From the NCBI GenBank assembly GCA_028713125.1, contig JAQTOU010000001.1, forward strand, positions 328,273 to 392,272: a stretch of DNA of 64,000 nucleotides, written 5' to 3'. This document shows, in pieces, positions 3,549-34,396 of this stretch (the first letter of the stretch is position 1; each line of letters opens with the position of its first letter). Both the position numbers and the translations under genes were made by a program. This DNA is from Elusimicrobiales bacterium (GTDB taxonomy: Bacteria; Elusimicrobiota; Elusimicrobia; Elusimicrobiales; UBA9959). Under the pieces are notes generated by a model. The model was not told the origin of the DNA, searched no databases, and was given only the letters and a program-made list of their open reading frames with translations.

Positions 3549-6500
3549 TTATCTTATGACCGCGAATTTTCTCGTCTCGCCGTCGGTCTCTCCGCTGAGC
3601 TCATGCTTTAACTTCACGCTGTAGAAATAGATCCCGCTGGCCGGCTTTCCGCCGGAGAAGTCCCAGCGGTACTCGTAAACGTTGCCCGGCCCCGCCGTCC
3701 ACCCAGGATCGGAATCCTCCGCCGACTTCACCAGCGAACCGTCCACCGCGAAGATCGAAAGCCGCTTGCGCGCCGGGAGTATTTCCGACTCAAGGTGGAA
3801 TTTAACGTAGGTGGCCGCGGGATTGGGATAGGCGTAAACGGCGCCTTTCACGAGGAGCTGCCCCAGCGGCTTGATCTCCAAATTCTGTCCCGGGGCCAGC
3901 TTTATCTCGAAATTTTTCCAGACGCCATCGTCTCCCATCACGCGGAGGCTGTAAGGGCCGGGGATAAGGTTGCGGATGGCGAAGCGCCCGGTCATGTCGG
4001 GGCGGGCCGACGCGACCATGCGCGCGCCGCGCCAGAGCTGGGCCTGGACGCCGGCCGCCGAAGACCGCATGCCGGAAGGGGCGGAAGCCGGCAGGGTTCC
4101 GCTGACGCTGGCGAGCTGGTAGTCGAGCGTGAGGAGGAAGTTAGCGTCGGAATAGCCCATAGGGATCTGGTCTTTCGCTATGGAGCTTGAAAAGCCGTCC
4201 TCCAGCCAGGTAGCCTGCACGCGGTAAACTCCGTCGGGCAGCGGAACCAGGGTGAAGGTGCCCAGGCCGTCGTCCACCGTATAGACGGAAGAGACGACGA
4301 GCCCCAGGTTGGAGATAGCGTCAACCATAACCCCGGTTATCCCGACCCCGCCCGGCGTTTTTACCGAGCCGGCGATCATATCATTGAGGCGGTCGCCCGA
4401 GACGGCGTACGGGACCGCGGACGGGCCGGACCACTGGTCGGCGTCATCCTTCACCCACATCGTGAAATAGTAAGTCGTCTCCGGGATAAGCCCGGCCACG
4501 GTATAAGCCAGGGAGCCCGCCGGCGGGACCATCGCGGTGGAAATAAGCACCTGGGCCGACTGCGTGCTGAAGACCGCTCCCGCGAAAGTGGAATACTGCA
4601 CCGCGAACTGCCCGTAGGTGAGGGCCAGCGTCCCCCCGTCGTCGCCGGGGAAGGTCCAGGCCAGGTCTACGCGGCCGGGGGCCGAACCCTTGGAGGGACT
4701 GAAAGAAGTAACCGCGTCCGGGGCGACGGTGTCCACCCAGGTAAAGGTCGAGCCAGCCGCTCCGAAGACGGAGGTGTTGGCGGGAAGCGCGGCGTCCTTT
4801 GAGACCGCCGCGACAAAATACTGCTGGTTATGGGCCAGGCCGCCGCGCAGGCCGGCGCCGGGAACAAAAAACCAGGCGGGGCCGGCTACCGTGGCGCTGG
4901 CTACCGGGACCTCGCCCCAGGAATCCGAGGAGAAATTCCACCATTTGCCGTCCGAGACGCGCTTGATGTACAGTTCGATCGAGCCCAGCCCGGACCCGCC
5001 CGTATCGGCGGCCGTTCCCTCTATTCCGGTCAGGGCGTAAACCGTGGTTCCCGCCGGCGGCGTAGAAAGATAGACCGAAGGAGAAACCTGGTCGAGGAGG
5101 AAGGAAGCGTTTGGATAAGGCGCCGGCGTGAGGAAAGAATTGACGTCACGCGACCGGGCTTTTACCTTGTACTGCACGCCCGCGGAAAAAGGCGCCGTAG
5201 AGGCGTTATAAGACCAGGAGGAAAGGCCGGACGCCTGAAGCCACACTTCCACCGCCGAGGAGAAAGAAGAGCCGTCGTAATAAAGATTCCCGCCAAGCTC
5301 CTGTATGGAGACCTGGTTGGCGGTCACCGGGCTGGCTTCGTTCATGGCAGAAGCAGTACCGGTAAAAGCCGTCACCGTGGAGACATAGGCCGAGGCTGGA
5401 GAGGTGATGGTGACCGCCGGCCCGACCGTGTTTTTAAGTATTTTGAAAGCGTCTGCCAGCGTGCGCGTATTGCCGGCGGCGTCTACGGCGCGCACGCTTA
5501 TATAATTAGTGGCGCCGTCGCGAAGCCCGGCGAAGTTCACGCCCCAGAGGGCGGTATAGGAGGAGGGCGCCGGGGTGAACCCGGCCACGGCGGTCCAGCC
5601 AAGGATGTTCGCGTCGGCCAGCCCGGGGTTGGAACTTGCGCTGTAAAGAAGCTGGCCTAGCCCGGAAAGCGCGTCATTGAAGTCGACGTCGAAAACCGCG
5701 CCCGGGTCAGCGGCCTGCCAGCCGGGCGGCGAGGCGGAGTAATTATCTATATTCGGCGGCGTGGTGTCGCGGCGCACATAGAAAGCGTCGGGGTACACGG
5801 TAGTATTCCCGGAATTATCATAGACGCGGACCGAAACGTAGCTGGTGACGTTTTCCTGTATGGCTTCGAAAACCGGCGCGGGCAGCATCCAGTCGGTATC
5901 ATAAGTGTCGGAGTTGATCCCTGTAATGGCCAGGGTCCAGGTAGAGACGACCGTCCCAGTAAAATTCCGGCCGGTCGAGACCGCCACCTGGAATTTATCC
6001 AGCAGCGAGCCAAGATCGGAAAAATGGACCATGTAGGAACCGCTTGCCGCGCCGCGCCAGGTGTCGTCGCCGGCCTGCAGCGGGATCACCGATGGAGGAG
6101 TATTATCCGCCCCGGTAAGGGTTGGCTTCGCGCCCAGGTCTAGCCAGGCGCTGGAGCGGCCCTGGAGGTCGCGCGCTTTCACCCTGAAGTGATAGAGGCG
6201 CCCCGACTCGAGACTATTCACCGTGCGGACGGGCCCCGTGAACCAGACTTTGGGCCCGGAGTCGAACCCAAGGAAATCAGCCGAGGTACTGACCTGCACC
6301 CAGTATTCCGTATAGTTCGGATTGCCGTTGGCCAGCCACTGGGTCGGAACGGAAGTGGCGTCAGGAATCCCTAGGCCGGGCGGGTTATCGGACGGAACCG
6401 CTGCGTGGGTGAGAGTGGCCCCGAAAACCACGAAATCAGAATAAATCCCCCCCCAGCTCACGGCCGCCGCTTTGAAATAATGCGTCGTATTGGGCTGCAG

Positions 6501-7283
6501 TTCCGCGGCATCGTAATAATTCCCGTCGGTGATAGAGGAATAGTTGACCGTAGAAAAGCCCTGAGAAGTTGAAACCACCAGTTCATAGCGGGTTCCGAAA
6601 GGGTTGCCGTTATCGTCCCAGACAAGAGAAAGCCCGGTGGCCGAAACCGCCGGGTAAGCCTCGCTGCCGGGCGGGTATGCGCGGGTAATTGTGGAGAGGT
6701 TATTCGTGTACGGGCTGTCCTGCCCCCCGAAGCCAAGGGCTTTGACGCGCAGAAAGTAGGTGGCATTGGGGTTAAGGCCCTCGTAAAGTACGGCAGACGG
6801 GACGCCGCTGGATATGGTGTTAATTGTGAAGGAGTCATCCTGCGAAGCCTCCGCCCAGTAGATCGTCCCAGTGGCGTTATTGCCGGCGGACCATTGAACG
6901 GCGAGGCTGCTGATATTAACTTCGGAAAGGGTTAAGGCCTCCGGCGCGACCGGGGGCGTAGCGGACGAAACCGGGGAAGAATAGGCCGCGTCGCTTTCCG
7001 TTGAAACTTTAACCTTGAAATAATATGTGGCGTTCGAGAGTAAGCCGTAGTAGGAGGTGGAATTCTGGCCCAGGGTAAGAATAGCGCTGGAGACAGGAAC
7101 GGAAAAAGAGGGGTCGGAGGAAAGGACCATCAGGGGAGTCTCCATACCTGGAGTATCCAAAGTCCATGAAACGGAGAGCGAATTCGAGGAAACGGAGGTA
7201 AAACTTACAGACGAAGGCACGGAGGCCCGGAGCGCCCCCGTGAAAAAAGAAAATACTAGAGCAAAAATAACAGATTTTCGCAT
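3549..7283 (-). CDS. Large secreted fibronectin type III repeat protein with FlgD/T9SS-like C-terminal domain
   Basis: 1244 residues with signal peptide MRKSVIFALVFSFFTGALRA. The first 400 residues contain at least four fibronectin III repeats, each with an 'L.V.W' strand and a 'NATYYFKVK'/'NTTHYFKAAA'-type strand. The middle (about 400-900) has Ig-like/Big-like repeats with 'DNSGNTT', 'DAAGNTR' and 'TAADTGGSG' motifs. A further Fn3 unit follows (ETTYYFTMWVKD), then a carboxypeptidase-regulatory-like unit (GSVKTPGGVGITGVMVDA). The last 90 residues begin AVYAYPNPAATYVKFHLE and end GIYFYSVKLK...KFAVIR, the FlgD-like/type A sorting fold of type 9 cargo. It is the first gene of the surface operon. 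A promoter-like TTACCA-17-TATAAT lies just upstream. Confidence 0.85.
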   Translation of the reverse strand: MRKSVIFALVFSFFTGALRASVPSSVSFTSVSSNSLSVSWTLDTPGMETPLMVLSSDPSFSVPVSSAILTLGQNSTSYYGLLSNATYYFKVKVSTESDAAYSSPVSSATPPVAPEALTLSEVNISSLAVQWSAGNNATGTIYWAEASQDDSFTINTISSGVPSAVLYEGLNPNATYFLRVKALGFGGQDSPYTNNLSTITRAYPPGSEAYPAVSATGLSLVWDDNGNPFGTRYELVVSTSQGFSTVNYSSITDGNYYDAAELQPNTTHYFKAAAVSWGGIYSDFVVFGATLTHAAVPSDNPPGLGIPDATSVPTQWLANGNPNYTEYWVQVSTSADFLGFDSGPKVWFTGPVRTVNSLESGRLYHFRVKARDLQGRSSAWLDLGAKPTLTGADNTPPSVIPLQAGDDTWRGAASGSYMVHFSDLGSLLDKFQVAVSTGRNFTGTVVSTWTLAITGINSDTYDTDWMLPAPVFEAIQENVTSYVSVRVYDNSGNTTVYPDAFYVRRDTTPPNIDNYSASPPGWQAADPGAVFDVDFNDALSGLGQLLYSASSNPGLADANILGWTAVAGFTPAPSSYTALWGVNFAGLRDGATNYISVRAVDAAGNTRTLADAFKILKNTVGPAVTITSPASAYVSTVTAFTGTASAMNEASPVTANQVSIQELGGNLYYDGSSFSSAVEVWLQASGLSSWSYNASTAPFSAGVQYKVKARSRDVNSFLTPAPYPNASFLLDQVSPSVYLSTPPAGTTVYALTGIEGTAADTGGSGLGSIELYIKRVSDGKWWNFSSDSWGEVPVASATVAGPAWFFVPGAGLRGGLAHNQQYFVAAVSKDAALPANTSVFGAAGSTFTWVDTVAPDAVTSFSPSKGSAPGRVDLAWTFPGDDGGTLALTYGQFAVQYSTFAGAVFSTQSAQVLISTAMVPPAGSLAYTVAGLIPETTYYFTMWVKDDADQWSGPSAVPYAVSGDRLNDMIAGSVKTPGGVGITGVMVDAISNLGLVVSSVYTVDDGLGTFTLVPLPDGVYRVQATWLEDGFSSSIAKDQIPMGYSDANFLLTLDYQLASVSGTLPASAPSGMRSSAAGVQAQLWRGARMVASARPDMTGRFAIRNLIPGPYSLRVMGDDGVWKNFEIKLAPGQNLEIKPLGQLLVKGAVYAYPNPAATYVKFHLESEILPARKRLSIFAVDGSLVKSAEDSDPGWTAGPGNVYEYRWDFSGGKPASGIYFYSVKLKHELSGETDGETRKFAVIR

Positions 7284-7293
7284 CTTAGGCTAT

Positions 7294-7322
7294 ATTATAG
7301 ACAATAATATAGAAGATGGTAA
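7294..7322 (-). promoter_or_regulatory. Promoter of the fibronectin-repeat operon
   Basis: On the minus strand, TTACCA (7317-7322) and a perfect TATAAT (7294-7299) are separated by 17 bases. Ten bases separate the -10 from the ATG and there is no Shine-Dalgarno sequence, so the message would be leaderless or nearly so. The same -35 hexamer with the same spacing occurs before the DUF3536 gene at 56.98 kb. Confidence 0.6.
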
Positions 7323-7340
7323 GGTGATGAATGATATATG

Positions 7341-7387
7341 TGACTAAAGTAACTTGACTTTAGTCAAGTTCCGGATGCCTTATCCGG
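7341..7387. promoter_or_regulatory. Overlapping palindromes, including TTGAC-N4-GTCAA, between LUD gene and surface operon
   Basis: TGACTAAAGT (7341-7350) pairs with ACTTTAGTCA (7357-7366). AACTTGAC (7351-7358) pairs with GTCAAGTT (7363-7370). The two folds overlap and exclude each other. A third hairpin, CCGGAT/ATCCGG, lies at 7371-7387, right after the LUD gene stop. The core TTGAC-N4-GTCAA (7354-7367) has the layout of CRP/FNR-superfamily operators and sits about 77 bp upstream of the surface operon start codon. It could be an operator, a terminator/attenuator, or both. Confidence 0.45.
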
Positions 7388-7390
7388 GCA

Positions 7391-8029
7391 TTAATATCCC
7401 AGGTCTTCGTTTATGAGCATGACCAGGATATCGCTGGCGGACGGCTTTTTCCAGAGCAGGGTCACTGCATTGCAGATGCGCCCGGGAGAGGAGCAGTCGG
7501 AGCAGCGGCCGGTTTTAACGCAGGGATTGTCTTTTTTAAGGCGCAGATTATTGGCGATGGCGGCTATATTACGCGAGCGCCATAAGCCCTCCTCCTGGTC
7601 TTTCGCTATCTTGTTGATCCCGGCAAGGAGGACGATCTTCCGCGGGCCGTAAATGACCGCGGCGCCGCGGTTCCCGTTCCCGTCGATAAAGATAAGTTTT
7701 CCATCGAGAGTGACCGCCTGCGGGGACGCCAGGTAAAGATCCGAGGCCTGCGCCGCCAGCCAGGTCGACCGCTTGACTTCGGCGTCCATCCCGGGCCTGT
7801 GCGTCACTATCGTATTGCCCGCGGCCGCCAGCGCTTCTTCCAACCCGAGGGCCTTGACCGTCATAGAACCGCCCAGGCCTATTTTTTTCCCGGCGCCGGC
7901 CAGGGACAGGAGTGCGGCGGCGGCGGAGGAGCCGCTCTCGTAGACCGCGGCCTCGAAGCGGTTGGCCCGGAGAGCCGCCGCCGTATTTTCCAGGATCTTG
8001 AGATTTAAGGTTTTAATATTTTCTTCCAT
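7391..8029 (-). CDS. LUD-domain protein (LutC/YkgG-like)
   Basis: 212 residues that match the LUD (lactate utilisation, DUF162) fold from end to end: AAALRANRFEAAVYESG, IGLGGSMTVKALGL, RPGMDAEVKRSTWLAAQASD, ITLDGKLIFIDGNGNR-like strand TLDGKLIFIDGNGNRGAA, and IVLLAGINKIAKDQEEGLWR. The C-terminal cysteines (CVKTGRCSDCSSPGRIC) are common in this stand-alone subgroup and could bind metal. In Bacillus, LutC acts with the iron-sulfur proteins LutA and LutB in lactate oxidation. No partners are present here, so the substrate is not determined. The start ATG at 8029 is the first residue of a well-formed N-terminal helix. Cytoplasmic. Confidence 0.85.
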   Translation of the reverse strand: MEENIKTLNLKILENTAAALRANRFEAAVYESGSSAAAALLSLAGAGKKIGLGGSMTVKALGLEEALAAAGNTIVTHRPGMDAEVKRSTWLAAQASDLYLASPQAVTLDGKLIFIDGNGNRGAAVIYGPRKIVLLAGINKIAKDQEEGLWRSRNIAAIANNLRLKKDNPCVKTGRCSDCSSPGRICNAVTLLWKKPSASDILVMLINEDLGY

Positions 8030-8045
8030 AAGACATCCTCATCTT

Positions 8046-8072
8046 AAAGAAAAACGGGACCCTTCGGTCCCG
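8046..8072 (-). terminator. Intrinsic terminator after the coiled periplasmic protein gene
   Basis: CGGGACC (8055-8061) and GGTCCCG (8066-8072) form a 7-bp stem with a 4-base loop. On the minus strand it is followed by TTTTTCTTT, a classic Rho-independent terminator for the gene ending at 8100. Confidence 0.8.
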
Positions 8073-8099
8073 CCTTTCCATCCGATCTTGCAGCGCGGC

Positions 8100-8771
8100 T
8101 CAGGGCTGGGTCTTCGAGACCAGGCTCTGGGCGTCGTAGGAGATATCGCGGACTTTCCAGGAGAAATCCCTGCCGTTGCGGGAGATATCCATGGCCGTCC
8201 ACTGGGCGTTGTAGCCGATCAGCTCCGGCTTGGCGCTGCGCACCGCCCATTCAAGGCGCTGAGTAGAATTCTCGATATCGAACTGGACACGGTTCAGGAG
8301 GCTGCGGGCGTCCATATCTATGTCGCGGGCGATCCTGTTAAGCTCCTGGTCTTTCTCGGCGAGATTGAGGAGGTTCTTCACGTTCATTCCCAGGTTCTGC
8401 GCGCTGGTATTGTAGCGGCCTATATCCCAGGACATCCGCTGCAGGTCGTTCTGGAAGAAAGGATCGGCACTGTTGGTCTGGGCGATGCGGCGGGCGGTGC
8501 TCTCGAGGCGGTCGAGGTCGGAGCGGACCCAGGTGGTGTCGCTCTCCAGGCGCCAGATGTCGTTCTTGACCTGGTTGAACCTGTTGATGACGTCCTGCGG
8601 GACCGAGGCCGGGACTACTACGGGCGCGGGGGCGGCCGGGACGGGGACCGCGACGGCCTCCGCTTTGGCGCGCAGATCCGCGGCTTTTAACGTCGATAAT
8701 CTGGAAAAGTCCGCGGCGAAAGCCGAGGACGCGATGGAAACCAGTACGAGAGCGAACATTGATTTTTTCAT
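8100..8771 (-). CDS. Exported helical (coiled-coil) protein of unknown function
   Basis: 223 residues. A signal peptide (MKKSMFALVLVSIASSAFA) is followed by a short Pro/Ala/Val-rich linker (PVPAAPAPVVVPA). The remainder is almost wholly helical with regular heptad-like spacing, for example VINRFNQVKNDIWRLESDT, LDRLESTARRIAQTNS and LNLAEKDQELNRIARDID. I recognise no catalytic motif. It is monocistronic: a TTACTT-17-TATAAT promoter and AGGAG lie upstream and a strong terminator follows. A periplasmic structural or chaperone-like role is possible, but the function is unknown. Confidence 0.75.
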   Translation of the reverse strand: MKKSMFALVLVSIASSAFAADFSRLSTLKAADLRAKAEAVAVPVPAAPAPVVVPASVPQDVINRFNQVKNDIWRLESDTTWVRSDLDRLESTARRIAQTNSADPFFQNDLQRMSWDIGRYNTSAQNLGMNVKNLLNLAEKDQELNRIARDIDMDARSLLNRVQFDIENSTQRLEWAVRSAKPELIGYNAQWTAMDISRNGRDFSWKVRDISYDAQSLVSKTQP

Positions 8772-8808
8772 TCTTAAAAACTCCTGACCTTTCGATTTAC
8801 TGTAATTA

Positions 8809-8837
8809 ATTATACATCCGTGGCGGCGCCGAAGTAA
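8809..8837 (-). promoter_or_regulatory. Promoter of the coiled periplasmic protein gene
   Basis: Minus-strand TTACTT (8832-8837), a 17-base spacer and a perfect TATAAT (8809-8814). An AGGAG motif lies shortly before the ATG at 8771, so this transcript has a normal leader. Confidence 0.6.
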
Positions 8838-8846
8838 GCGGCTAAA

Positions 8847-8866
8847 GGCCTACCCGCGGATAGGCC
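8847..8866 (-). terminator. Weak hairpin terminator after the pullulanase gene
   Basis: GGCCTA (8847-8852) and TAGGCC (8861-8866) form a 6-bp stem just downstream of the pullulanase stop codon. A short TTT follows on the minus strand, so it is a weak candidate. Confidence 0.4.
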
Positions 8867-8876
8867 GAAAGTCCCG

Positions 8877-11366
8877 CTACAGGTCGAGGCGCAACACCGA
8901 CAGGGAGAGCGGCTCGACCTCGAAAGACCCGGAGACCGGCTGCCCGGGCTCTTTTACCAGTCCTACGGAATCGAAAGCTTCCAGCCACCTGCCTTCGGGG
9001 AGCGCGAATTTACGGGGCGCCTTCTCAGGATTTACGAGCACCAAAATGCGGCGCCAGGAGTCCCCCGACTTATCTCCGTAAAGCACATAGGCGATGGCGG
9101 GCGGCTTAAGCTTCAGCCCAAGCTCCTCGTAGAATTTAAGATTCTCCCTGACCTCGGCGGCGGTTTTCATCCGGAAAGCCGGATGGTCCCGGCGCAGCGC
9201 GATCAGGTCGCGGTAATAGGAAAATACAGGGAAATTTTCCTTCTTGCGCGTCCAGTCCAGGCGGTTAATTTCATCCGGCAGGTTATAGGAATTATCGTGC
9301 CCGTTCTTGGTCCGCAGGAATTCTTCTCCGGCGTGGATAAAAGGTATGCCCTGCGAAGTGAGCACCAGCGCGTTCGCCAGTTTGTCCATGGCCGTCTTAT
9401 GCTGCAGCGGCTCGTCCTTCACCGACAGGTCTATGCGGTCCCACAGTGTATTATTGTCGTGGCAGGAGACATAGTTCATCGTCTCGAGCGGGCCGTCGGT
9501 GAAGTCATCCACGGCGCCGCGTATGCCGAGCATCACGCCCTCCCGGTTCTTCGCTGCCTGCACGTAGCCCAGGTCCGCCACGGAAAATACGCTGCCCTTG
9601 ATAGCGTCCCTGAATCCGTCGTTGAACACGGCGTAGCCCTGCGAGCGCTGGCTGCCTTTCTTGACGCCTTTCACCGGCGTTGCCCCGGCGGCCCAGGGCT
9701 CCCCGTAAATGAATATATCCGGCTTTTCAGCCTTAAGGACGCGCACTATTTCGGCGGCCGCGTCGGTATCGATCAGCCCCATCAGGTCGAAGCGGAAGCC
9801 GTCGACCTTGTACTCCCTCACCCAGTACAGCAGACTGTCCAGCAGGAATTTGCGGGCCATGGGCGCCTCGGTGCGGAACTCGTTGCCGCAGCCGGAGCCG
9901 TTGGAGTAGGTTCCGTCGGCATTGAGCCGGTAATAGTAATCCATGGCGACGGCGTTGAAGTTGTAAGTGGTAGCGCGGGTCTCGGCCGTGTGGTTATAGA
10001 CGACGTCCATGATGACCTTGAGCCCCTTGCGGTGGAAAGCGTCTATCATCTGCTTCGCTTCCCGCACCCGTGACGAGTCCGCGGGATCCGTGGCGTAGGA
10101 GCCCTCCGGGGAATTGAAGTTGACGGGCATATAGCCCCAGTTGTAGGCCGAGGTGCTGTCTCCGTTCTCGAAGTCCTGGAAAGGAAGGATGTGCACGGCG
10201 TTCACGCCGAGCTCGGCGATATGGTCCAGGCCAGTGGCGATCTGCGGGAAACCGGGATGCCTTGTCCCGGCTTCGGCGGCGCCCAGGTATTTGCCCTTGT
10301 TCTTTACGCCGGAGAACTTGTCCATGGTCAGGTCGCGGAGATGCACTTCGTAAACCACGGCTTCGGAGACGTCGAAGGACGGGCCGGGATAGACGGGTGT
10401 TTCATCTTTCACGACCAGCGCTTTGCCGGCGTCGCCCGTAACGCAGCGGGCGTAAGGGTCGAGCCCCTCGTAAATCTTGCCGTTCTGCTCGGTGCGCAGG
10501 CGGTAATATTTACCCTCCAGCGGGCCGGGGAATTTTCTTTCCCAGATCCCGCCCGCCCTGGGGCCGAGCTCGTGGACGTAGGGCTGCGCCCCGGGGAAAT
10601 CATAGACCAGGGCCTCTACCTTTACCGCGTAGGGAGCGAAAACGCGGAGGACCGAGCGTCCTTTTTCGGACGTCATCCCCAGTTCGAGCGGACTGTAGAA
10701 TTCTCCGCCGTAAACCGCGCCGCCCAGGCGCAGGACGACCGGCTCGAAACCGGCGGAATTAAGTTTGTATTCCCCGGCATTGACCGTTTTATAATCGGGA
10801 TCAAAACCGGCGAACACCAGCCTGGCCGCGCGGGAGTAGGTCCCGCCGAGAGGCGCCGCCGAAGAGACAGTAAATGTTTCCGTGCCCCGACTGAGCGAAA
10901 AGCCCTGGCCCGCCAGGAAGTCCGCGGCCAGCGGGCGGGTAAAGGTTACGCGCACCTCTCCGGCCCCGTCCAGCCAGGCGCCCGTTACGGCGGTGGAGAC
11001 CGCGGGCGGGGCGGGATAGACTTTCGCGTCACCTTCTAGCAGGTACACTTCGCCCTGGCGGGCCGCCGCGAGGATCTTATCGGGGGCGTCTTTGTTCGTC
11101 CAGTTTCCCTGCCGCGGCAGGAAGCCCGTCCTTTTTCCGGACAGCCCCGATGCGTCGAGGTCGAGCTCGTAAAATACGCCGTAGGGCCCGTCGCCGGCGG
11201 GCGCCAGTTCGAAGCCGGGGGTTTTGTCCTCGTCGTTCCAGACCCAGAGGTTCCAGCCGGAGTAGACCTTGTCCAGCCGGCTGTAATGGACCACGAGTTT
11301 GTCGGCGCCGAAAAGCTGCTGCGGCATAAGCAAGGCCCCCAATAGAACGAATTTGATGAATTTCAT
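8877..11366 (-). CDS. pulA: Exported type I pullulanase-like GH13 debranching enzyme
   Basis: 829 residues with signal peptide MKFIKFVLLGALLMPQQLFG. Residues about 23-110 form a CBM41/PUD-type starch-binding domain (SGWNLWVWNDEDKTPGFEL). A linker/Ig region and a CBM48-like domain (about 220-320, LEGKYYRLRTEQNGKIYEGLDPYA) precede the GH13 barrel. The pullulanase signature appears as YNWGYMP, where type I enzymes usually have YNWGYDP. Catalytic residues are visible: Asp in GFRFDLMG (about 524), Glu in IFIYGEPW (about 556) and Asp in VSCHDNN (about 636). It should hydrolyse alpha-1,6 bonds in pullulan or branched glucans outside the cytoplasm. AGGGGA precedes the start. It is divergent from the DUF4015 glycosidase with only 43 bp between start codons. 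Confidence 0.9.
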   Translation of the reverse strand: MKFIKFVLLGALLMPQQLFGADKLVVHYSRLDKVYSGWNLWVWNDEDKTPGFELAPAGDGPYGVFYELDLDASGLSGKRTGFLPRQGNWTNKDAPDKILAAARQGEVYLLEGDAKVYPAPPAVSTAVTGAWLDGAGEVRVTFTRPLAADFLAGQGFSLSRGTETFTVSSAAPLGGTYSRAARLVFAGFDPDYKTVNAGEYKLNSAGFEPVVLRLGGAVYGGEFYSPLELGMTSEKGRSVLRVFAPYAVKVEALVYDFPGAQPYVHELGPRAGGIWERKFPGPLEGKYYRLRTEQNGKIYEGLDPYARCVTGDAGKALVVKDETPVYPGPSFDVSEAVVYEVHLRDLTMDKFSGVKNKGKYLGAAEAGTRHPGFPQIATGLDHIAELGVNAVHILPFQDFENGDSTSAYNWGYMPVNFNSPEGSYATDPADSSRVREAKQMIDAFHRKGLKVIMDVVYNHTAETRATTYNFNAVAMDYYYRLNADGTYSNGSGCGNEFRTEAPMARKFLLDSLLYWVREYKVDGFRFDLMGLIDTDAAAEIVRVLKAEKPDIFIYGEPWAAGATPVKGVKKGSQRSQGYAVFNDGFRDAIKGSVFSVADLGYVQAAKNREGVMLGIRGAVDDFTDGPLETMNYVSCHDNNTLWDRIDLSVKDEPLQHKTAMDKLANALVLTSQGIPFIHAGEEFLRTKNGHDNSYNLPDEINRLDWTRKKENFPVFSYYRDLIALRRDHPAFRMKTAAEVRENLKFYEELGLKLKPPAIAYVLYGDKSGDSWRRILVLVNPEKAPRKFALPEGRWLEAFDSVGLVKEPGQPVSGSFEVEPLSLSVLRLDL

Positions 11367-11395
11367 ATCGAATCCCCTTTGTTCCTGTTAAATTG

Positions 11396-11401: not shown

Positions 11402-11409
11402 ATATACCT

Positions 11410-12561: not shown

Positions 12562-12584
12562 CGGAGCCCGCGGCCTTCGCCTCC

Positions 12585-12620: not shown

Positions 12621-12638
12621 ATTTCAAGGCTTCCTTGC

Positions 12639-26575: not shown

Positions 26576-26590
26576 CCTGAGCTTCGCCTT

Positions 26591-27106: not shown

Positions 27107-27164
27107 TAAAGATTTATTGTATAATTGATTCGGTCACAGACGTGAACAAACAACAGGAGATCTC

Positions 27165-28409
27165 ATGTCACCGCGCATAATCAGTTTCTTCGGAATGTTC
27201 GTGCTTCTCGGTATAGCCTGGGTTTTCAGCAAGAACCGCAAAGCCATCAACTACAAGACCGTCGTCACCGGGACCCTCCTCCAGGTAACTTTCGCCATAC
27301 TGATACTGAAAGTCCCCTTGGGCCGCCAGGTCTTCCAGTTCATGAACGACGTGATAATCAAGCTGCTTTCCTTCTCGGACGAGGGAGCCAAGTTCCTCTT
27401 CGGCAGCCTGATAAACAACCAGTCCCTCGGCTTCCTGTTCGCCTTCCAGGTACTCCCCACCATAATTTTCTTCTCCTCGCTGATGGCTGTCCTTTACTAC
27501 CTGGGCATCATGCAGAAAATAGTCCTGGTCTTCGCCAAGATAATGGCAAAGACCATGGGGACTTCCGGCGCAGAGTCGCTGTCGGCCAGCGCCAACATCT
27601 TCGTGGGTCAGACCGAGGCCCCGTTGGTGGTCAGGCCTTATGTTTCCAGGATGACCAACTCGGAGCTGATGGCGGTAATGACAGGAGGCATGGCCACCAT
27701 AGCAGGCGGGGTCATGGCGGCCTATGTCGGGATACTGATGGGCTACCTCCCCAATATCGCCGGCCACCTGCTGGCGGCTTCGATAATGTCAGCCCCCGCC
27801 GCCCTAGTGATGGCCAAGATCCTGGTCCCCGAGACCGAGGAGCCGGTAACCAGGGGCGTCGTAAAAATGCAGCTCGAGATAACCGACGCCAATGTAATCG
27901 ACGCTGCGGCTAACGGCGCGACCGTCGGCCTCCAGCTGGCGCTGAACGTAGGGGGCTGCCTTGTCGCCTTCATGGCTATACTGGCCCTCGCCAATTTCGT
28001 AACCGGCTATGTGGGCGGTGTTTTCCATTATCCGCAGCTCTCGCTTGAAATGATCTTCGGCTGGATCTTCACCCCTCTGGCCTGGGTTATGGGCGTCCCC
28101 TCCGGGGAAGTCCAGCAGGTAGCCAACTGGATGGGCCAGAAGACCGTCCTGAACGAGTTCGTCGCCTATTTTAATATGGCTAATTATCTGAAAGCCAATC
28201 CCGGCGTTATGAGCGAGCGCTCGGTAGTGATAGCCTCTTACGCCCTGTGCGGCTTTTCCAACTTCCTTTCCATCGCCATTCAGATAGGCGGCATAGGCGG
28301 GATAGCTCCGGAGCGCAGGCATGACCTGGCGAAGCTCGGGCTCTATGCCGTGCTGGCAGGATCTTTGGCCTGCTTCATGACCGCGACCATAGCCGGATTC
28401 CTGATTTAA
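27165..28409 (+). CDS. NupC-family concentrative nucleoside transporter
   Basis: 414 residues with at least ten hydrophobic segments. Diagnostic CNT features are present: FQVLPTIIFFSSLMAVLYYL, SLSASANIFVGQTEAPLVVR, ELMAVMTGGMATIAGGVMAA, ANGATVGLQLALNVGG and SYALCGFSNFLSIAIQIGG. The first two contain the nucleoside- and sodium/proton-binding residues of the family (GQTEAP). It imports nucleosides by ion symport at the inner membrane and fits with the phosphopentomutase at 12.6 kb. CAGGAG lies before the ATG, and a TATAAT-like -10 occurs at 27120-27125. A strong bidirectional terminator follows. Confidence 0.93.
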   Translation: MSPRIISFFGMFVLLGIAWVFSKNRKAINYKTVVTGTLLQVTFAILILKVPLGRQVFQFMNDVIIKLLSFSDEGAKFLFGSLINNQSLGFLFAFQVLPTIIFFSSLMAVLYYLGIMQKIVLVFAKIMAKTMGTSGAESLSASANIFVGQTEAPLVVRPYVSRMTNSELMAVMTGGMATIAGGVMAAYVGILMGYLPNIAGHLLAASIMSAPAALVMAKILVPETEEPVTRGVVKMQLEITDANVIDAAANGATVGLQLALNVGGCLVAFMAILALANFVTGYVGGVFHYPQLSLEMIFGWIFTPLAWVMGVPSGEVQQVANWMGQKTVLNEFVAYFNMANYLKANPGVMSERSVVIASYALCGFSNFLSIAIQIGGIGGIAPERRHDLAKLGLYAVLAGSLACFMTATIAGFLI

Positions 28410-28417
28410 ACTTTAAT

Positions 28418-28463
28418 AAAAAAGCGAAAGGGCGTCCCGGCAGGGACGCCCTTTCGCTTTTTT
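28418..28463. terminator. Bidirectional intrinsic terminator
   Basis: A 21-bp perfect stem (left arm 28418-28438, right arm 28443-28463) with a 4-base loop. A-rich and T-rich ends serve the convergent NupC and WD40 genes. Confidence 0.92.
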
Positions 28464-28474
28464 GAAGGCGCCTC

Positions 28475-29404
28475 TCAGGGCAGGCTCCAGATCTTCACCG
28501 TCTTGTCCTTGGAGCCTGAGGCAAGAAGCCTGCCGTCGTGGGAGAAAGCCAGGGCCTGCACGCCCGCATCATGGTCCTTCAGCTCCCTGGCAGGCCCTTT
28601 CTGCGCTCCCTGCAGGAACCAGAGCTTTATCGTGCCGTCCTCGCCGCCGCTCGCGAAACGTTTGCCGTCCGGGGAGATCGCCACGGCCCTGGCTCCGCCG
28701 GCATGCGCGGCGAAGGAATTCACGAGCGAGCCGTCGGCCAGCCGCCACACTTTTACGTATCCGTCGAGTCCCGCGGAAACGGCGTAAGCGCCGTCGGAGG
28801 AAATGGCCAGGCCCCTGACCGCGTCCTTATGCGCGCTGATGGTCTTGGTGATCTTCCCGTCGTTCATATTCCAGACCGTGACCGTGCCGTTGCCGTTGCC
28901 GGAAATTACGTAAGTCCCCTTGGGCAGCCCCGCCACGGCGTTCACCGTCTCCACTCCTGATTTCATTGCGCGGTAAACCTCCCCCTCCGGAAAAGTCCAG
29001 ATCCCGACGCAGCCCAACCCCCCGGAAAGCAGGTATTCCCCCCCGGGTGAGAAGGCTACGCTGTAGAGATTGATGCTCTGGCCGTTATAACTCGCAGAAT
29101 TTTTTCCGCCGGGCATGGCCCAGATCTCCACGGTCTTATTATCGGTGGAGGCAAGATACTCCCCGTCCGGAGAAAAAGCCAGCGCCCTGACCGGGTACTT
29201 ATGGCCCACTAATAATTTTTTCTGCTTTGCCGTCTTGACGGTCCACAGGATCACATTGGCGTCCACGCCCGAGGAGGCAAGCAGTTTCCCGTCCGGAGAA
29301 AAAGCCACCGTCTCGACCGGCGCGCTGTGTCCCACAAGGGTAAGCGGCGTCTGCGCTCCGGCCTGGGCCGCGGCGTATAAAAGCACAAAGAAAAAGTATC
29401 TCAT
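28475..29404 (-). CDS. Exported seven-bladed WD40 beta-propeller protein
   Basis: 309 residues. A signal peptide (MRYFFFVLLYAAAQAGAQ) is followed by seven WD40 repeats, each with the 'GH...V..VAFSPDGKLLASSG...I.LW' pattern, such as HSAPVETVAFSPDGKLLAS, HKYPVRALAFSPDGEYLAS, AVAISPDGKRFASGGEDG and HDAGVQALAFSHDGRLLAS. The last repeat ends KDKTVKIWSLP exactly at the stop, so the propeller fills the whole mature protein with no catalytic domain. GGGGGGAT precedes the ATG. WD40 propellers serve as protein-interaction platforms, and here it would be periplasmic. The partner is unknown. Confidence 0.9.
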   Translation of the reverse strand: MRYFFFVLLYAAAQAGAQTPLTLVGHSAPVETVAFSPDGKLLASSGVDANVILWTVKTAKQKKLLVGHKYPVRALAFSPDGEYLASTDNKTVEIWAMPGGKNSASYNGQSINLYSVAFSPGGEYLLSGGLGCVGIWTFPEGEVYRAMKSGVETVNAVAGLPKGTYVISGNGNGTVTVWNMNDGKITKTISAHKDAVRGLAISSDGAYAVSAGLDGYVKVWRLADGSLVNSFAAHAGGARAVAISPDGKRFASGGEDGTIKLWFLQGAQKGPARELKDHDAGVQALAFSHDGRLLASGSKDKTVKIWSLP

Positions 29405-29505
29405 GATCCCCCCTGAATTTGTCCGGAGCCCCTTCCGGCAATTGATATTTTACAATATCGCGCCGCGAAAAAAGCATGGCCGCCTAAAATATTCTAGAAT
29501 TGGGT

Positions 29506-30720
29506 ATGGGCCTGAAGTTGCTGATAAATTCCCTCTTCCGCGGCGGCGCCGAAAAACAATTCGCCGCGCTGGCCCGTCTGCTCCCCCACGACGCGCTGAT
29601 CCTCCTTGAAAACGAGATAGCCCAGCCGGCTGACCCCACGGCTATCAAAACGCTTTCCGGCCACACCCACTCCACCAGCCCGCTGCTTAAGACGGCTTCG
29701 ATACATTTGTACGCCCGCCGCCTGGCCGCCCTTACCGGGCCGGGAGACACTGTGCTGTCCTTTATGGAAAGGGCCAATATAGTAAATATCCTTGCGGCGG
29801 AGAAGAGCGGGCATAGGGCGGTGATCTGCGAACGCACCAGCCCCTCCGGAGAATTCTCAGGGCTGCGCGGCGCCCTCATGCGCCCCCTTATCCGTCGGTA
29901 TTACACCAGGGCGGCCCTGGTAGTTGCCAATTCAGCCGGAGTCGGAAAAGACCTGGCGGAGAATTTTGCGGTGCCGCCTGAAAAGATACGCGTCATTCAA
30001 AATGGCTGCGATGTTTCCGGAATAGCCGCCCTGGCGTCCGCCCCGATGCCTCCCGGCTGGGGCCCGGTCTTCGAAAGGCAGGTGATAGCCGCCGGCGGGA
30101 GGCTGACCGCCGCTAAGGGCCACTGGCATCTGCTCAGGATTTTCAGCGAATTGAAGAAAACCAGGCCCGGCGCGGCCCTGGTCCTCATTGGGGAGGGCGA
30201 GCTGCGCGCCTACCTGCTCAAACTCTCGGCCGGCCTTGGCCTGAAAACTTTTTCCGGCCCCGGGGCCCCGCCTCCCGACGCGGACGTTTATTTTACCGGC
30301 TACAGGGAGAACCCATACCTGTTCATCGCTAAAGCCGGTCTTTTCGCCTTCACCTCCCTGTGGGAAGGCTTCCCCAACGCCCTGCTCGAGGCGATGGCCT
30401 GCGGGACCGCGGTCGCTTCCGCCGACTGCGCCTCGGGACCGAGGGAGATACTTTCCCCCGGCACAGGCCTGGCTGGCGCCGCTACGACCCCGGACCACGC
30501 GCCCTACGGCCTGCTTATGCCCGTGCTCTCCGGCGCCAGGCTGCGGGCCGGGGCGCCGCTCGAGGCGGAGGAGCGGATCTGGACGAATAAACTGGCGGAA
30601 ATGCTGGAGGCGCCTGCGGCGCTGCGGAGCTACGCCTCGGCCGGCCTTAAGCGGGCCGCGGACTTCGACCTGCAAAAAACCGCCGGGCTCTGGCTGGAAC
30701 TGCTGAAACCTACCACATAA
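29506..30720 (+). CDS. GT4-family glycosyltransferase
   Basis: About 404 residues from the ATG at 29506. A TTG two codons upstream is the alternative start. The N-terminal half opens LKLLINSLFRGGAEKQFAAL, the donor/acceptor glycine-rich loop of GT4 enzymes, and contains VICERTSPSGEF and VVANSAGVGKDLAENF. The C-terminal glycosyltransferase-1 domain has VIAAGGRLTAAKGHWHLLR, ALVLIGEGELRAYL, VYFTGYRENPYLFIAKA and the EX7E-type motif SLWEGFPNALLEAMACG. It is related to enzymes that use nucleotide-sugar donors in polysaccharide or lipopolysaccharide synthesis. The acceptor is unknown. The 3' end overlaps the convergent PorV-like gene by 11 bp. Confidence 0.9.
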   Translation: MGLKLLINSLFRGGAEKQFAALARLLPHDALILLENEIAQPADPTAIKTLSGHTHSTSPLLKTASIHLYARRLAALTGPGDTVLSFMERANIVNILAAEKSGHRAVICERTSPSGEFSGLRGALMRPLIRRYYTRAALVVANSAGVGKDLAENFAVPPEKIRVIQNGCDVSGIAALASAPMPPGWGPVFERQVIAAGGRLTAAKGHWHLLRIFSELKKTRPGAALVLIGEGELRAYLLKLSAGLGLKTFSGPGAPPPDADVYFTGYRENPYLFIAKAGLFAFTSLWEGFPNALLEAMACGTAVASADCASGPREILSPGTGLAGAATTPDHAPYGLLMPVLSGARLRAGAPLEAEERIWTNKLAEMLEAPAALRSYASAGLKRAADFDLQKTAGLWLELLKPTT

Positions 30721-31789
30721 AATAGACTTCGCTGCCTTTTTTCTCTTTCTTCTTATCCTTGCTCTTGTCTTTCTTTTCTACCACCGCTTTCTTAGGGGCA
30801 GGAGGCCTGAGCGAAGCCGGCGCCGGCTTTCTCTGGCGCGGCACGGGCAGGTCGCCGTAGGGGTGCTTTTTAACTTCCTCCGGGCGGGGCGCGCCGAAAC
30901 TTAAAGCCACCGTGACCCTGTGCGCGTCGCCCAGGTCGCCGTAAGGCGCGAAAGCGTAGTCCACCCGCAGGTCCCTGTTCTTAAGCCCGACCCCGACGGT
31001 AAAGCCCGGCCCGGCATAGCGGCTGCGCCCGGTCTTGTACCCGGCGCGGATAAAGAAGAATTCTTTCGGCCCGGCGTGCAGCCGCCCTTCCGCGCCCAGC
31101 GCGGCCGCGGCGCCGGAGTCTCCGGCCTTTACGCCGTCGGCGCTGACCAGGAAATCTTCGGTAAAGCTGCGGGAAATGCCGGCCCTGAGCATCAGCGGCA
31201 GGTCGAAGCTGCGCGTCCCGAACTTCAGCCTGCCCCCGAAATTAGCCGCGGAGATCCCGAACCGCCAGCCGCCTGCGGCCTTCAACAAGCCGGCGTCGCC
31301 CGACCAGGCCATGGCTTTGCGGCCCGCCGCCTGCTGGGTCAAAGCCTTCAGCGCCGCCCCGCCGAAAAAGTTCCCGCCAAGGTCGCCGGAAAGGCCCGCA
31401 GAGAAAGCGCCTTCGAGGGAGCTGAACGAGCCGTTCCTTTCTCCCACCGCATCGTACCTGTTCATGCTTCCGCTGAAGAGCGCGTTGATCCCGGCGAAAG
31501 CGGTAAGGCGCGCGCCGAGAGGATGGACGTACGCCAGCGTTTCATTGCGTATCCCTTCCAGCCATTCGTTGTGTCCGAGCAATATCTCTTTTTCATTTAC
31601 CAGGGCGGTGCCGGCGGGATTATAAAAAACGCTCAGGGCGTCGTCGCCCGCGGCGCAGTAAGCCCCGGATAGAGCGGCGCCGCGCGCTCCTGTGTCCAGC
31701 TTTAGAAAAGGCAAAGCCTCTCCCCCCGCGCCGGCCCTGGCGGGCGGAGCGTAAAGCAGCAGGAAGGAAATAGCGATGGCGGCTTTCAT
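30710..31789 (-). CDS. PorV/PorQ-like outer-membrane barrel protein with Lys-rich tail
   Basis: 359 residues with a signal peptide (MKAAIAISFLLLYAPPARAG). The start FLKLDTGARGAALSGAYCA, then DDALSVFYNPAGTALV, matches the PorV/UPF0164 pattern seen in the gene at 1-889. About 12 amphipathic strands follow, ending VTVALSFG at about residue 296. An unusual C-terminal extension of about 60 residues is rich in Pro and Lys (KKDKSKDKKKEKKGSE) and ends with the aromatic YFMW. The gene starts 3 bp after the M64-like peptidase gene, so they are almost certainly co-translated. In type 9 secretion PorV shuttles cargo bearing C-terminal domains; a similar pairing is inferred here. Confidence 0.85.
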   Translation of the reverse strand: MKAAIAISFLLLYAPPARAGAGGEALPFLKLDTGARGAALSGAYCAAGDDALSVFYNPAGTALVNEKEILLGHNEWLEGIRNETLAYVHPLGARLTAFAGINALFSGSMNRYDAVGERNGSFSSLEGAFSAGLSGDLGGNFFGGAALKALTQQAAGRKAMAWSGDAGLLKAAGGWRFGISAANFGGRLKFGTRSFDLPLMLRAGISRSFTEDFLVSADGVKAGDSGAAAALGAEGRLHAGPKEFFFIRAGYKTGRSRYAGPGFTVGVGLKNRDLRVDYAFAPYGDLGDAHRVTVALSFGAPRPEEVKKHPYGDLPVPRQRKPAPASLRPPAPKKAVVEKKDKSKDKKKEKKGSEVYFMW

Positions 31790-31792
31790 GAT

Positions 31793-34396
31793 TTACCAGA
31801 CTATGAAGAACTTGCCCCTCCCTTTTCCGTAGTTGGCTGTTTTTACCAGGTAGATATAAAGCCCGCTGGCGGCCCGCGAGCCGCCTTTGAGTTTGCCGTC
31901 CCAGGAAGCGATATTAAGGCCATTTATCCCGTCGCCCGGCGCAAGGGACCTGACCAGCTCGCCGGCCTCGTTGTAAATATATACCCGGGTTCCGGCAGCG
32001 TCAGCCGGGATCCCCTCCAGCGTAAGGGCGGCTACGGAGCGGAAATCGCACGGGTTGGGGTAGGCTTTGATAGAGCCGATATCGGCCGCGGCGGCGCCTG
32101 CAGATCTGACCGAATAGACGGAAAAGTGCGAAATCTCGGCCGACAGGGTATTGGCGGCGGTATTCCGCACTACTCCCGGGAGCGGGGTCCATTTGCCGAG
32201 CGCGGAGTCCAGGTAATAGAGCCAGGCGGTAGATTCATTGATCAGGTCCATGTCTATCCTGCCGTCGCTGTCGGCATCGGGATAGGCCATCGTTATAGTG
32301 ACCGTCGTCAAAAAAGCGGTAACAGAGGCGCCATTCCCGTCCCTGGCCGTAAATTGCCTGGCCAGGTCGGAGGAAAAGATCTTTCTTGAATCCGGCGAAG
32401 CGGCGTCGGGGCCGGAGAGCGTTGCCGCCGGCACGGTAGAAATTGAAATATACAGGGTCCCTGTATAGGCGCCGACCGGCACCATTACGGAATTCCCGTC
32501 GCCGTTGGAGATAGTCCCGCTGGAGCCGCCCGTAAGCGCTGGGCTGATAACGAAGGACCCGCCGGAAGTTATCGCGGTCCCGCTATTGCCAGCCAGGTCA
32601 GAAGCGCTGAAGTGGAAAGTGGCGGTCCCGGTAGAGTGGTAGGATTCTATATAGCCTGAAGCAGTCCAGGTAGAATCCGCGACATAGGTCATCGAGAGAG
32701 GGACCGTCAGCCCGTTAAGGTCGGTAAAGGAAACTTGCGGAGTCGCCGCGACGTCGTTCAATTCGTTTACGGTTACCTTCGCGCTGAATGGCCCCGTCTT
32801 TACCGGGACTGGAGAGGTAATAAGAACGGTGGCCGTAGGGCTTGTAGTATCCACCCTCAGCCCGTCGGAGGTCGCCGGGCCGGAAACGGCGCCGTTGACC
32901 GGATAAGCCCTCACGGTGAAATAATAGTAGGCTCCCTCCGCCAGGGAGAGGCCGGTTTTAGTTACGCTCAGCGCGGTTCCCACATTTGTCATCGCTACTG
33001 TGTTCGAAGCCCCGGGCGCGGTGCCTACGGTATATGTGTAGCTGCTTATACCGCTCCAATGGGAAGAAGCGCCCCAATTCGCGGAAAGCGTGTTCTTGGA
33101 ACGCGTATAATCCTCGTCCACGCCGACGCCGTCATACAGGTAGGGGATATCGCCCCCCTGCCCGGTATCCACCGAAAGAGTGTCCGCAGCCGGGGTCGCG
33201 TCATAAGCGCCAAAGTTGTCCTTGGCGCGCGCCTGCATGGTATGCGCGCCGGTGGCCAGCGAGGCCGCGGTAAACGTAAAGCTGTCGATGGTCTGGTTAA
33301 AAGCGCCGTCGCGCGGAGTAGCGGCGGTCCAGGCCGAGCCGTCGACACTATATTCCACCGAGGCTATGCGGTTTATGCTTACGTTATTGGGCGTGCGGGG
33401 GCCACCCCACTGGGCGTAGCCGTTAATATTGGGATAAGCCGAGGTAGAGTGCGCTATGCCATAAAAGACCGGGGAAGTGTTAGTGGTCGGGTCAGGGGCA
33501 TAAGCGGCAAGGGCGGTAGTCGGCGGCAGGTCGATCAGGTCGAGTGTTCCGTTCGTAGGATTATCGTCGCTCCAGCCGAGCGCCCTGGTACTGGCGGCAC
33601 AAACCACCGGGCCATTGCAGGTCGGACAGGAGCCTGAACTGGGGTAATACGGATAAATATCGCCGCGCATTATACAGCTGGACGTAGTCCCGCCGTTCTG
33701 ACAGTTAGTATTCGGCACGTCCAGATAGCCCGATCTGTCCGAGGTAGCGCAGCCGGAAGCCGCGTATTCGTCCAGCGCGTAAAAGATATGCCCGGTTTCA
33801 TGGGCGGCCACCGCGGCTACGTAGTTTATCGTGTAGCCTCCATTATCGTAAGTCATTATCATGAAAGGCCCGCCTATATAGGCATAGGCGAAATAACCGT
33901 CCGAAAATTCTCCGCTGATGCTCTGCTGGCTGTCGACCATGAAGATCGTAAAGGACCAGTCGGCAGAATTGGCCAGGCGCATATCGTTATTGTAGTGGAA
34001 CACCCTGTCGCCGTAGTCGGCCTCGGAGTAGCCCAGCTTGCCCATCACGTCCGCTATCCAGAGGTCCTCGTCGGCACTCGGGTGGTTTATAGGTTCGTAG
34101 CCGGTGGTCAGGGTGATATTATTGTGCACGAAAGTAAGGCTGGCCGCGGAGTTGCGGGCCGCCCACCAGTTCATCGCCTCGGTCACCCCCGTAACGACGG
34201 CGTTCCTTTTGCTGAGGGTCCAGCCCGAGGTTTCGGTCTTCGGATCGATGGAACCGTCGCTCTGGACAAAAACGATATTCACCGCCACCTTCCCTATCAG
34301 GTATTCGCTGGTGTCGTAAAAGCCCGCCCCGTACGGCGCGGCGGCGGCCCGCAGCGAGCAGGCCAGGAGGAGCAGGAAAGCGGCCGTCTTTTTCAT
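31793..34396 (-). CDS. Secreted M64-like zinc peptidase with FlgD/T9SS-like C-terminal domain
   Basis: 867 residues with a signal peptide (MKKTAAFLLLLACSLRAAAA). The zinc motif HETGHIFYALDEY is at residues 199-211. HExGHxFxxLxDEY resembles the M64 (IgA peptidase) family, and a candidate Met-turn SCIMRGD follows at about 240. Downstream are Ig-like and fibronectin-like repeats (ASVEYSVDGSAWTAATPRDG; GLSLAEGAYYYFTVRAYPV) and a beta region. The last 85 residues, from IKAYPNPCDFRSVAALTLEG to GLYIYLVK and KGKFFIVW-like end GRGKFFIVW, form a FlgD-like/type A sorting domain. The gene overlaps the upstream gene by 4 bp and is followed by its PorV-like partner. Substrate unknown. Confidence 0.82.
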   Translation of the reverse strand: MKKTAAFLLLLACSLRAAAAPYGAGFYDTSEYLIGKVAVNIVFVQSDGSIDPKTETSGWTLSKRNAVVTGVTEAMNWWAARNSAASLTFVHNNITLTTGYEPINHPSADEDLWIADVMGKLGYSEADYGDRVFHYNNDMRLANSADWSFTIFMVDSQQSISGEFSDGYFAYAYIGGPFMIMTYDNGGYTINYVAAVAAHETGHIFYALDEYAASGCATSDRSGYLDVPNTNCQNGGTTSSCIMRGDIYPYYPSSGSCPTCNGPVVCAASTRALGWSDDNPTNGTLDLIDLPPTTALAAYAPDPTTNTSPVFYGIAHSTSAYPNINGYAQWGGPRTPNNVSINRIASVEYSVDGSAWTAATPRDGAFNQTIDSFTFTAASLATGAHTMQARAKDNFGAYDATPAADTLSVDTGQGGDIPYLYDGVGVDEDYTRSKNTLSANWGASSHWSGISSYTYTVGTAPGASNTVAMTNVGTALSVTKTGLSLAEGAYYYFTVRAYPVNGAVSGPATSDGLRVDTTSPTATVLITSPVPVKTGPFSAKVTVNELNDVAATPQVSFTDLNGLTVPLSMTYVADSTWTASGYIESYHSTGTATFHFSASDLAGNSGTAITSGGSFVISPALTGGSSGTISNGDGNSVMVPVGAYTGTLYISISTVPAATLSGPDAASPDSRKIFSSDLARQFTARDGNGASVTAFLTTVTITMAYPDADSDGRIDMDLINESTAWLYYLDSALGKWTPLPGVVRNTAANTLSAEISHFSVYSVRSAGAAAADIGSIKAYPNPCDFRSVAALTLEGIPADAAGTRVYIYNEAGELVRSLAPGDGINGLNIASWDGKLKGGSRAASGLYIYLVKTANYGKGRGKFFIVW

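What the first reader, a model, noticed from the sequence alone, without database searches (positions are those of the whole stretch)
3549..34396. Two gene clusters pair FlgD/T9SS-like C-terminal domain cargo with PorV-like barrels
The products of 3549-7283 and 31793-34396 end in a 'YPNP ... GIYFY/GLYIYxVK' domain. Each cluster includes a PorV-like gene (1-889 and 30710-31789). In the second the barrel starts 3 bp after the cargo gene. In Bacteroidota PorV shuttles such cargo for type 9 secretion. Dedicated cargo-barrel pairs would be a variant arrangement.
Basis: partly seen in the sequence, partly recalled or inferred. Interest (0 to 1): 0.6.

Follow-up and report, generated by a model that had tools for sequence, protein, structure and literature searches.

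The report
Cargo proteins paired with dedicated PorV-like carriers
This uncultured Elusimicrobiota bacterium appears to put proteins on its surface through a stripped-down relative of the Bacteroidota type 9 secretion system, in which most tagged cargo proteins carry their own dedicated outer-membrane carrier gene right next to them instead of sharing one general carrier.

Summary
The window is from an Elusimicrobiota genome. Both barrels are PorV/PorQ-family proteins (NF033709, E~1e-40). The second is folded most like F. johnsoniae PorV, and a profile of it matches only PorV in the PDB. The second cluster is a true pair: the barrel starts 3 bp after the cargo gene, conserved in nine relatives. 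The first cluster is one operon, but two genes separate cargo and barrel. The pattern is genome-wide: about 28 PorV-family genes; 18 of 26 HMM-detected C-terminal domains (CTDs) have a barrel within 600 bp downstream on the same strand, none upstream or opposite (chance 0.07). A divergent SprA/Sov translocon is present in 39 of 41 phylum genomes. The motor (GldL/GldM) was not convincingly found, and the C25 sortase in one genome only. At the second locus the passenger has been swapped (unassigned HExxH, M6, papain) while CTD and barrel stayed. Several barrels carry OmpA or LysM tails. Best reading: a SprA-PorV type-9-like system outside the FCB group with cargo-dedicated carriers acting as anchors. 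In Bacteroidota that one-to-one logic is described for type B CTDs with PorP/SprF, whereas type A CTDs share one PorV. New variant of a known kind; cargo-barrel binding is inferred, not shown.

The parts
1..889 (-). PorV/PorQ-family outer-membrane barrel of cluster 1 (reading frame also open from ATG at 925; C-terminus lies just outside the window)
   Evidence: NF033709 139.9 bits, cut-off 90; UPF0164 over cut-off; genome match G000:C11:328238-329095
988..1755 (-). FecR-domain periplasmic protein in the cluster 1 operon
   Evidence: PF04773 E=4.9e-13
1798..3537 (-). Secreted protein with weak CARDB, Ig-like and PrcB-like matches, in the cluster 1 operon
   Evidence: weak hits only; 11 bp downstream of the cargo gene
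3549..7283 (-). CTD cargo 1: signal peptide, fn3 domains, carboxypeptidase-regulatory-like domains, C-terminal sorting-like domain
   Evidence: fn3 1.9e-19, CarboxypepD_reg 5.9e-9, Por_Secre_tail 16.8 bits; PorU-CTD match 1.9e-8
30710..31789 (-). Dedicated PorV/PorQ-family barrel of cluster 2, with a Lys-rich tail ending in a conserved VYFMW
   Evidence: NF033709 134.9 bits; AF2 barrel with best PDB match PorV 8gl6_F; orthologues conserved downstream of cargo
31793..34396 (-). CTD cargo 2: HETGH metallopeptidase-like passenger, Ig-like middle region, FlgD-type CTD (about residues 775-867)
   Evidence: FlgD_ig 30.4 bits over cut-off; passenger swapped in relatives while CTD and barrel are kept
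34393..35379 (-). Conserved small fn3-like secreted protein directly upstream of cargo 2 (4-bp overlap)
   Evidence: same position in the relatives' loci
36011..41992 (-). Bacterial alpha-2-macroglobulin, upstream member of the conserved cluster 2 neighbourhood
   Evidence: bMG10 2.8e-27, A2M 3e-15, MG2 1.9e-14; same position in relatives

Best explanation
The two loci belong to a genome-wide set of surface-protein modules that work like the outer-membrane half of a type 9 secretion system. Shown by sequence: each typical module is a Sec-exported protein with a FlgD/type-A-like C-terminal domain, followed on the same strand by a PorV/PorQ-family barrel gene; the genome has one divergent SprA/Sov translocon. 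Inferred: the cargo crosses the outer membrane through the SprA homologue, the co-encoded barrel captures its CTD at the translocon exit, and because there is one barrel per cargo and no detectable C25 sortase, the cargo stays on its barrel as a surface anchor (in some modules tied to peptidoglycan by an OmpA or LysM tail) instead of being handed on by a shared, recycling PorV. What energises it is unknown; no convincing GldL or GldM was found. Cluster 2 is a clean pair carrying a protease-like passenger; cluster 1 is a longer operon of the same system with two CTD cargos (one outside the window) and one PorV-family barrel.
For: PorV family membership and fold; PDB profile hits are only SprA and only PorV, two chains of one solved complex. 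Adjacency 18/26 vs 0.07 expected, always downstream; 23/46 in five relatives from truncated lists. SprA in 39/41 phylum genomes; the two without it have the fewest barrels (2, 1) and CTDs (1 weak, 0). Barrel and CTD counts per genome track each other, rho 0.97, partial 0.92 after genome size. Conserved pair in nine relatives with gaps from -11 to 3 bp; passengers swapped at the same locus (unassigned HExxH, M6, C1 papain) while CTD stays 63-82% and barrel 61-80% identical to the window copy. CTD and barrel divergence correlate over 37 pairs, Mantel r=0.56, p=2e-4. OmpA (2) and LysM (1) tails on PorV-family barrels. C25 peptidase absent from 40/41 genomes.
Against: No binding or secretion data. 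The CTD-barrel correlation within this genome alone weakens when type-B-like and odd pairs are removed (Spearman 0.24, p=0.12, n=13), and linked inheritance would also produce it. About a third of detected CTDs and 8 of 28 barrels have no adjacent partner, so some carriers may be shared. GldK, GldN, PorX/Y and others were not tested. The SprA homologue is below the equivalog cut-off (119.7 vs 200 bits).
Confidence: 0.68

Rival explanations
1. The barrels are interchangeable shuttles of a general PorV type; adjacency to cargo only ensures co-expression, and any barrel can serve any type-A-like CTD.
For: In Bacteroidota all type A CTDs use one PorV (PMC12618676); unpaired CTDs and unpaired barrels exist here; CTD and barrel distances correlate only moderately.
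Against: About 28 PorV-family genes per genome, strict gene order, pairs conserved through passenger swaps, and barrel tails that differ from module to module are unnecessary if one shuttle suffices.
Confidence: 0.2
2. The CTD is an Ig-like domain that stays periplasmic and tethers the protein to a FadL-like barrel or scaffold; the system is not secretion across the outer membrane, and the SprA homologue serves another role such as envelope assembly, given its place beside lptF/lptG.
For: No convincing motor or sortase; the SprA homologue sits beside lptF/lptG-like genes in most genomes examined; FlgD_ig is also a domain of flagellar FlgD.
Against: Passengers are proteases, Kelch propellers and fn3 chains typical of surface proteins; genomes without SprA have almost no CTDs or PorV-family barrels.
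Confidence: 0.1
3. The barrels are ordinary FadL/UPF0164-type uptake channels that happen to lie near CTD proteins.
For: UPF0164 is the Pfam family over cut-off and FadL structures follow PorV in the fold search.
Against: Adjacency is far beyond chance; PorV-family HMM scores are decisive and the best fold and only profile match is PorV.
Confidence: 0.02

Closest known systems
PorV-dependent type A branch of the Bacteroidota type 9 secretion system (F. johnsoniae, P. gingivalis)
   Same: SprA/Sov homologue, PorV-family barrel, Ig-like CTD with the YPNP...GIYxY...K pattern (TIGR04183/PF18962/FlgD_ig)
   Different: One general PorV serves all type A CTDs in Bacteroidota (PMC12618676); here about 28 PorV-family paralogues, most encoded next to a cargo; no convincing GldL/GldM and no C25 PorU in 40/41 genomes
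Type B CTD with cognate PorP/SprF shuttle pairs (F. johnsoniae SprB-SprF, Fjoh_3952-Fjoh_3951)
   Same: Substrate gene followed directly by its own 14-stranded FadL-like shuttle gene; some modules tied to peptidoglycan (PMC12618676, PMC9143113)
   Different: Barrels here score as PorV/PorQ family, with PorP/SprF matches only weak and only in a few type-B-like modules; most CTDs are type-A/FlgD-like; the peptidoglycan-binding OmpA domain is fused to the barrel instead of being a separate PorE
TIGR04183-bearing proteins of Poribacteria without known Por components
   Same: CTD-bearing repeat proteins outside Bacteroidota whose export route was left open (PMC3909097)
   Different: Here a SprA homologue and adjacent PorV-family barrels give a candidate route

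Membership tests
Type 9 secretion system | SprA/Sov outer-membrane translocon | tested here: met
   TIGR04189 E=7e-35, 119.7 bits in three stretches, below the 200-bit equivalog cut-off; profile hits only SprA in PDB, E=6e-33; in 39/41 phylum genomes
Type 9 secretion system | PorV-family carrier barrel | tested here: met
   NF033709 over cut-off for both window barrels; fold match to PorV for barrel 2
Type 9 secretion system | CTD-bearing, Sec-exported cargo | tested here: met
   TIGR04183, PF18962 and FlgD_ig hits over cut-off across the genome; signal-peptide-like N-termini
Type 9 secretion system | PorL/PorM (GldL/GldM) rotary motor | tested here: not met
   GldM: none in own genome, one chance-level match in 41 genomes; GldL: none in own genome, three weak sub-cut-off matches in 41. 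HMM absence cannot exclude a very divergent motor
Type 9 secretion system | PorK/PorN (GldK/GldN) ring | not tested
Type 9 secretion system | PorU C25 sortase that removes type A CTDs | tested here: not met
   PF01364 in 1 of 41 phylum genomes, not in this one
PorV (equivalog NF033710) or PorQ (NF033711) | score over the equivalog cut-off | tested here: not met
   40.7-49.2 vs 250 bits and 100.6-112.1 vs 220 bits
PorP/SprF shuttle family (TIGR03519, PF11751) | family HMM match over cut-off | tested here: not met
   no match for window barrels; weak sub-cut-off matches only in type-B-like modules
Cognate CTD-shuttle pair | shuttle gene directly downstream of substrate gene | tested here: met
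   cluster 2 gap 3 bp; 18/26 genome-wide. Cluster 1 not met: two genes intervene
Cognate CTD-shuttle pair | specific binding or dependence for secretion | not testable with these tools
   needs complex prediction or experiment

The most novel reading that the evidence does not exclude
Elusimicrobiota possess a motor-less, sortase-less type 9-like system in which each surface protein is exported by a common SprA-like pore and permanently held by its own PorV-type barrel, an ancestral or independently simplified form of T9SS outside the FCB group in which the type A/PorV branch works with the one-cargo-one-carrier logic otherwise described for type B/SprF.
Probability: 0.4. Interest if true: 0.8.

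Novelty: new variant of a known kind. Interest (0 to 1): 0.64.

Why it matters
A recent paper states that T9SS genes are absent outside the FCB phyla (PMC11285876) and another that type A CTDs all use one PorV (PMC12618676). A phylum-wide SprA homologue with dozens of cargo-linked PorV paralogues would extend the system to another phylum, suggest that SprA plus a PorV-like carrier can work without the known motor and sortase, and offer an export route for CTD proteins in lineages such as Poribacteria where none was known (PMC3909097). About 20 natural cargo-carrier pairs in one genome also provide material for working out how carriers recognise CTDs.

Tried and rejected
SprA by Pfam SprA_N alone gave only E=0.013 and would have been missed; TIGR04189 and a phylum profile settled it. 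A single-sequence PDB search with the SprA homologue or with barrel 2 found nothing useful; profiles did. AF2 of full cargo 2 was too poor to use (pLDDT 46), so no cargo fold search was made. The reading of the barrels as plain FadL or UPF0164 uptake channels was considered and rejected on adjacency and PorV scores. The reading of cluster 1 as a strict cargo-barrel pair was rejected on gene order. A paper search for T9SS in Elusimicrobiota found no report, but only openly licensed papers are held.

Full report
Observation. The window lies in a 3.48-Mb, 100%-complete Elusimicrobiota genome. Both barrels are over the cut-off of the PorV/PorQ family NF033709 but far below the PorV and PorQ equivalog cut-offs. 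Cargo 2 has a FlgD-type CTD over the Pfam cut-off; cargo 1 has a recognisable but weaker one. Cluster 2 is a true pair with a 3-bp gap. In cluster 1 a 579-aa protein and a FecR protein lie between cargo and barrel; the operon continues past the window edge with a 3250-aa protein, a 1531-aa Kelch CTD cargo (Por_Secre_tail over cut-off) and a 648-aa protein of unknown family.

The pattern is genome-wide. NF033709 finds about 28 distinct barrel genes (32 matches before merging split hits), and TIGR04183 and PF13860 together find 26 CTDs. For 18 of the 26 CTDs a barrel follows within 600 bp on the same strand; none lies upstream or on the other strand at that distance; random placement gives 0.07 on average and at most 2 in 2000 trials. 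Reading the gene maps adds one type-B-like CTD missed by the HMMs (C11:20378-20782) and two pairs in reverse order (C38:52003-53995; C26:154116-162718), so about 20 of 28 barrels have a neighbouring CTD gene. In five relatives, from truncated hit lists, 23 of 46 CTDs have a barrel directly downstream and again none upstream or opposite.

Translocon. SprA_N alone gave E=0.013, but the 1796-aa protein at C15:291591-296981 matches TIGR04189 at E=7e-35, and a profile of 15 phylum homologues hits only SprA in the PDB (E=6e-33). A homologue is present in 39 of 41 sampled phylum genomes. The two genomes without it have the fewest PorV-family barrels (2 and 1) and CTDs (one weak, none). Barrel and CTD counts correlate across genomes (rho 0.97; 0.92 after genome size).

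Barrel identity. The AF2 model of barrel 2 (11 sequences, pTM 0.66) is a barrel with a low-confidence N-terminal region; its best PDB match is chain F of the RemA-CTD-bound T9SS complex 8gl6, and chain F of 6h3i ranks third, with FadL structures between and after. That chain is PorV. The profile of its orthologues matches only PorV in the PDB (E=5.9e-16).

Missing parts. GldM was not found in this genome with two models, GldL was not found here and gave three weak matches in 41 genomes, and a C25 peptidase (PorU type) was found in only one of 41 genomes. GldK, GldN and regulators were not tested. HMM absence does not exclude a strongly diverged motor, as the SprA_N result itself shows.

Dedicated modules. 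In nine relatives with readable gene calls the cluster 2 barrel directly follows the cargo gene (gaps from -11 to 3 bp; the cargo gene of L021 was not resolved by the simple gene caller). Eight of these cargos were aligned with the window copy. The N-terminal part has been exchanged: an HETGH metallopeptidase-like domain without Pfam match in the window and three relatives, a Peptidase_M6 domain in two checked by Pfam (a third aligns with them), papain plus lectin-like domains in two others. Passenger identity to the window falls to 19-27% in the swapped ones, while the CTD stays 63-82% and the mature barrel 61-80% identical. So CTD plus barrel behave as the conserved unit. Over 37 pairs, CTD and barrel distances correlate (Mantel r=0.56, p=2e-4; own genome alone r=0.59, p=6e-4); without type-B-like and odd pairs the own-genome rank correlation is not significant (0.24, p=0.12, n=13). 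Linked inheritance would also give a correlation, so this supports stable pairing more than specificity.

Anchors. Several PorV-family barrels in this genome have C-terminal domains after the barrel: OmpA in two (with the CTD genes at C14:112122 and C26:129638), LysM in one (C15:551127), HEAT repeats, CsgG/LpoB-like domains or TPRs in others. In Bacteroidota a separate OmpA-domain lipoprotein, PorE, ties the PorP-PG1035 type B complex to the wall (PMC9143113). Fusion of the same kind of domain to the carrier suggests that these carriers are static anchors.

Mechanism (inferred). Sec export; translocation by the SprA homologue; CTD capture by the co-encoded barrel; retention on that barrel as the surface anchor. 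The steps shown by sequence are the components, their linkage, conservation and passenger exchange. Binding, order of events, energy source and surface location are not shown.

Comparison. In F. johnsoniae, type A CTDs all use PorV, whereas type B CTDs use cognate PorP/SprF shuttles often encoded directly downstream and thought to be needed in stoichiometric amounts (PMC12618676). The present system uses PorV/PorQ-family barrels and mostly type-A/FlgD-like CTDs with the type B logic. A 2024 paper states that T9SS genes are absent outside FCB phyla (PMC11285876); Poribacteria were noted to have CTDs without known Por genes (PMC3909097). No paper in the held library reports a T9SS in Elusimicrobiota. 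Verdict: a real, phylum-wide new variant of a known kind; outer-membrane features met, motor and sortase tests not met.

Noticed in passing
L080:7592-12982 (G000:C15:291591-296981) and L146-L160: The SprA homologue lies beside a divergent pair of permease-like genes that read as lptF/lptG, and is usually followed by a comF-like gene, in most phylum genomes examined; a possible link between SprA and LPS export or envelope assembly.
   Followed up: partly
L101:12253-16760 (G000:C11:307252-311759): Cluster of a FliG_C-domain protein with a signal-peptide-like N-terminus, a MotA-family protein and two MotB/OmpA proteins, about 2 kb from a CTD cargo operon; a candidate for a 5:2 type motor, but no link to SprA was tested.
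   Followed up: partly
G000:C35:268907-269161 (L092), also G000:C15:674507 and G028:C6:189665: Very long open frames (14446, 6824 and 13077 aa) end in CTDs; a PorV-family barrel follows closely in the first.
   Followed up: no
36011-41992: A bacterial alpha-2-macroglobulin stands upstream of the protease-like cargo and its barrel in the window and in most relatives' loci; possibly protection against the cell's own or foreign proteases.
   Followed up: partly
L081:5159-7066, L083:17908-19371, L103:11128-12573, L096:10120-11466, L090:10557-11996: PorV-family barrels fused to OmpA, LysM, CsgG/LpoB-like, HEAT or TPR domains.
   Followed up: yes
L078:9411-19160 (G000:C11:318410-328159): 3250-aa protein with no Pfam match between the cluster 1 barrel and a second CTD cargo.
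   Followed up: no
L101:16816-18762 (G000:C11:311815-313761): 648-aa protein with no family match and a barrel-like C-terminus directly downstream of a CTD cargo; possibly another kind of carrier.
   Followed up: no
L024:1988-2986: A PorV-family barrel (31% identical to barrel 2) in a contig labelled as a Clostridia MAG, without an adjacent cargo; perhaps a binning error.
   Followed up: no
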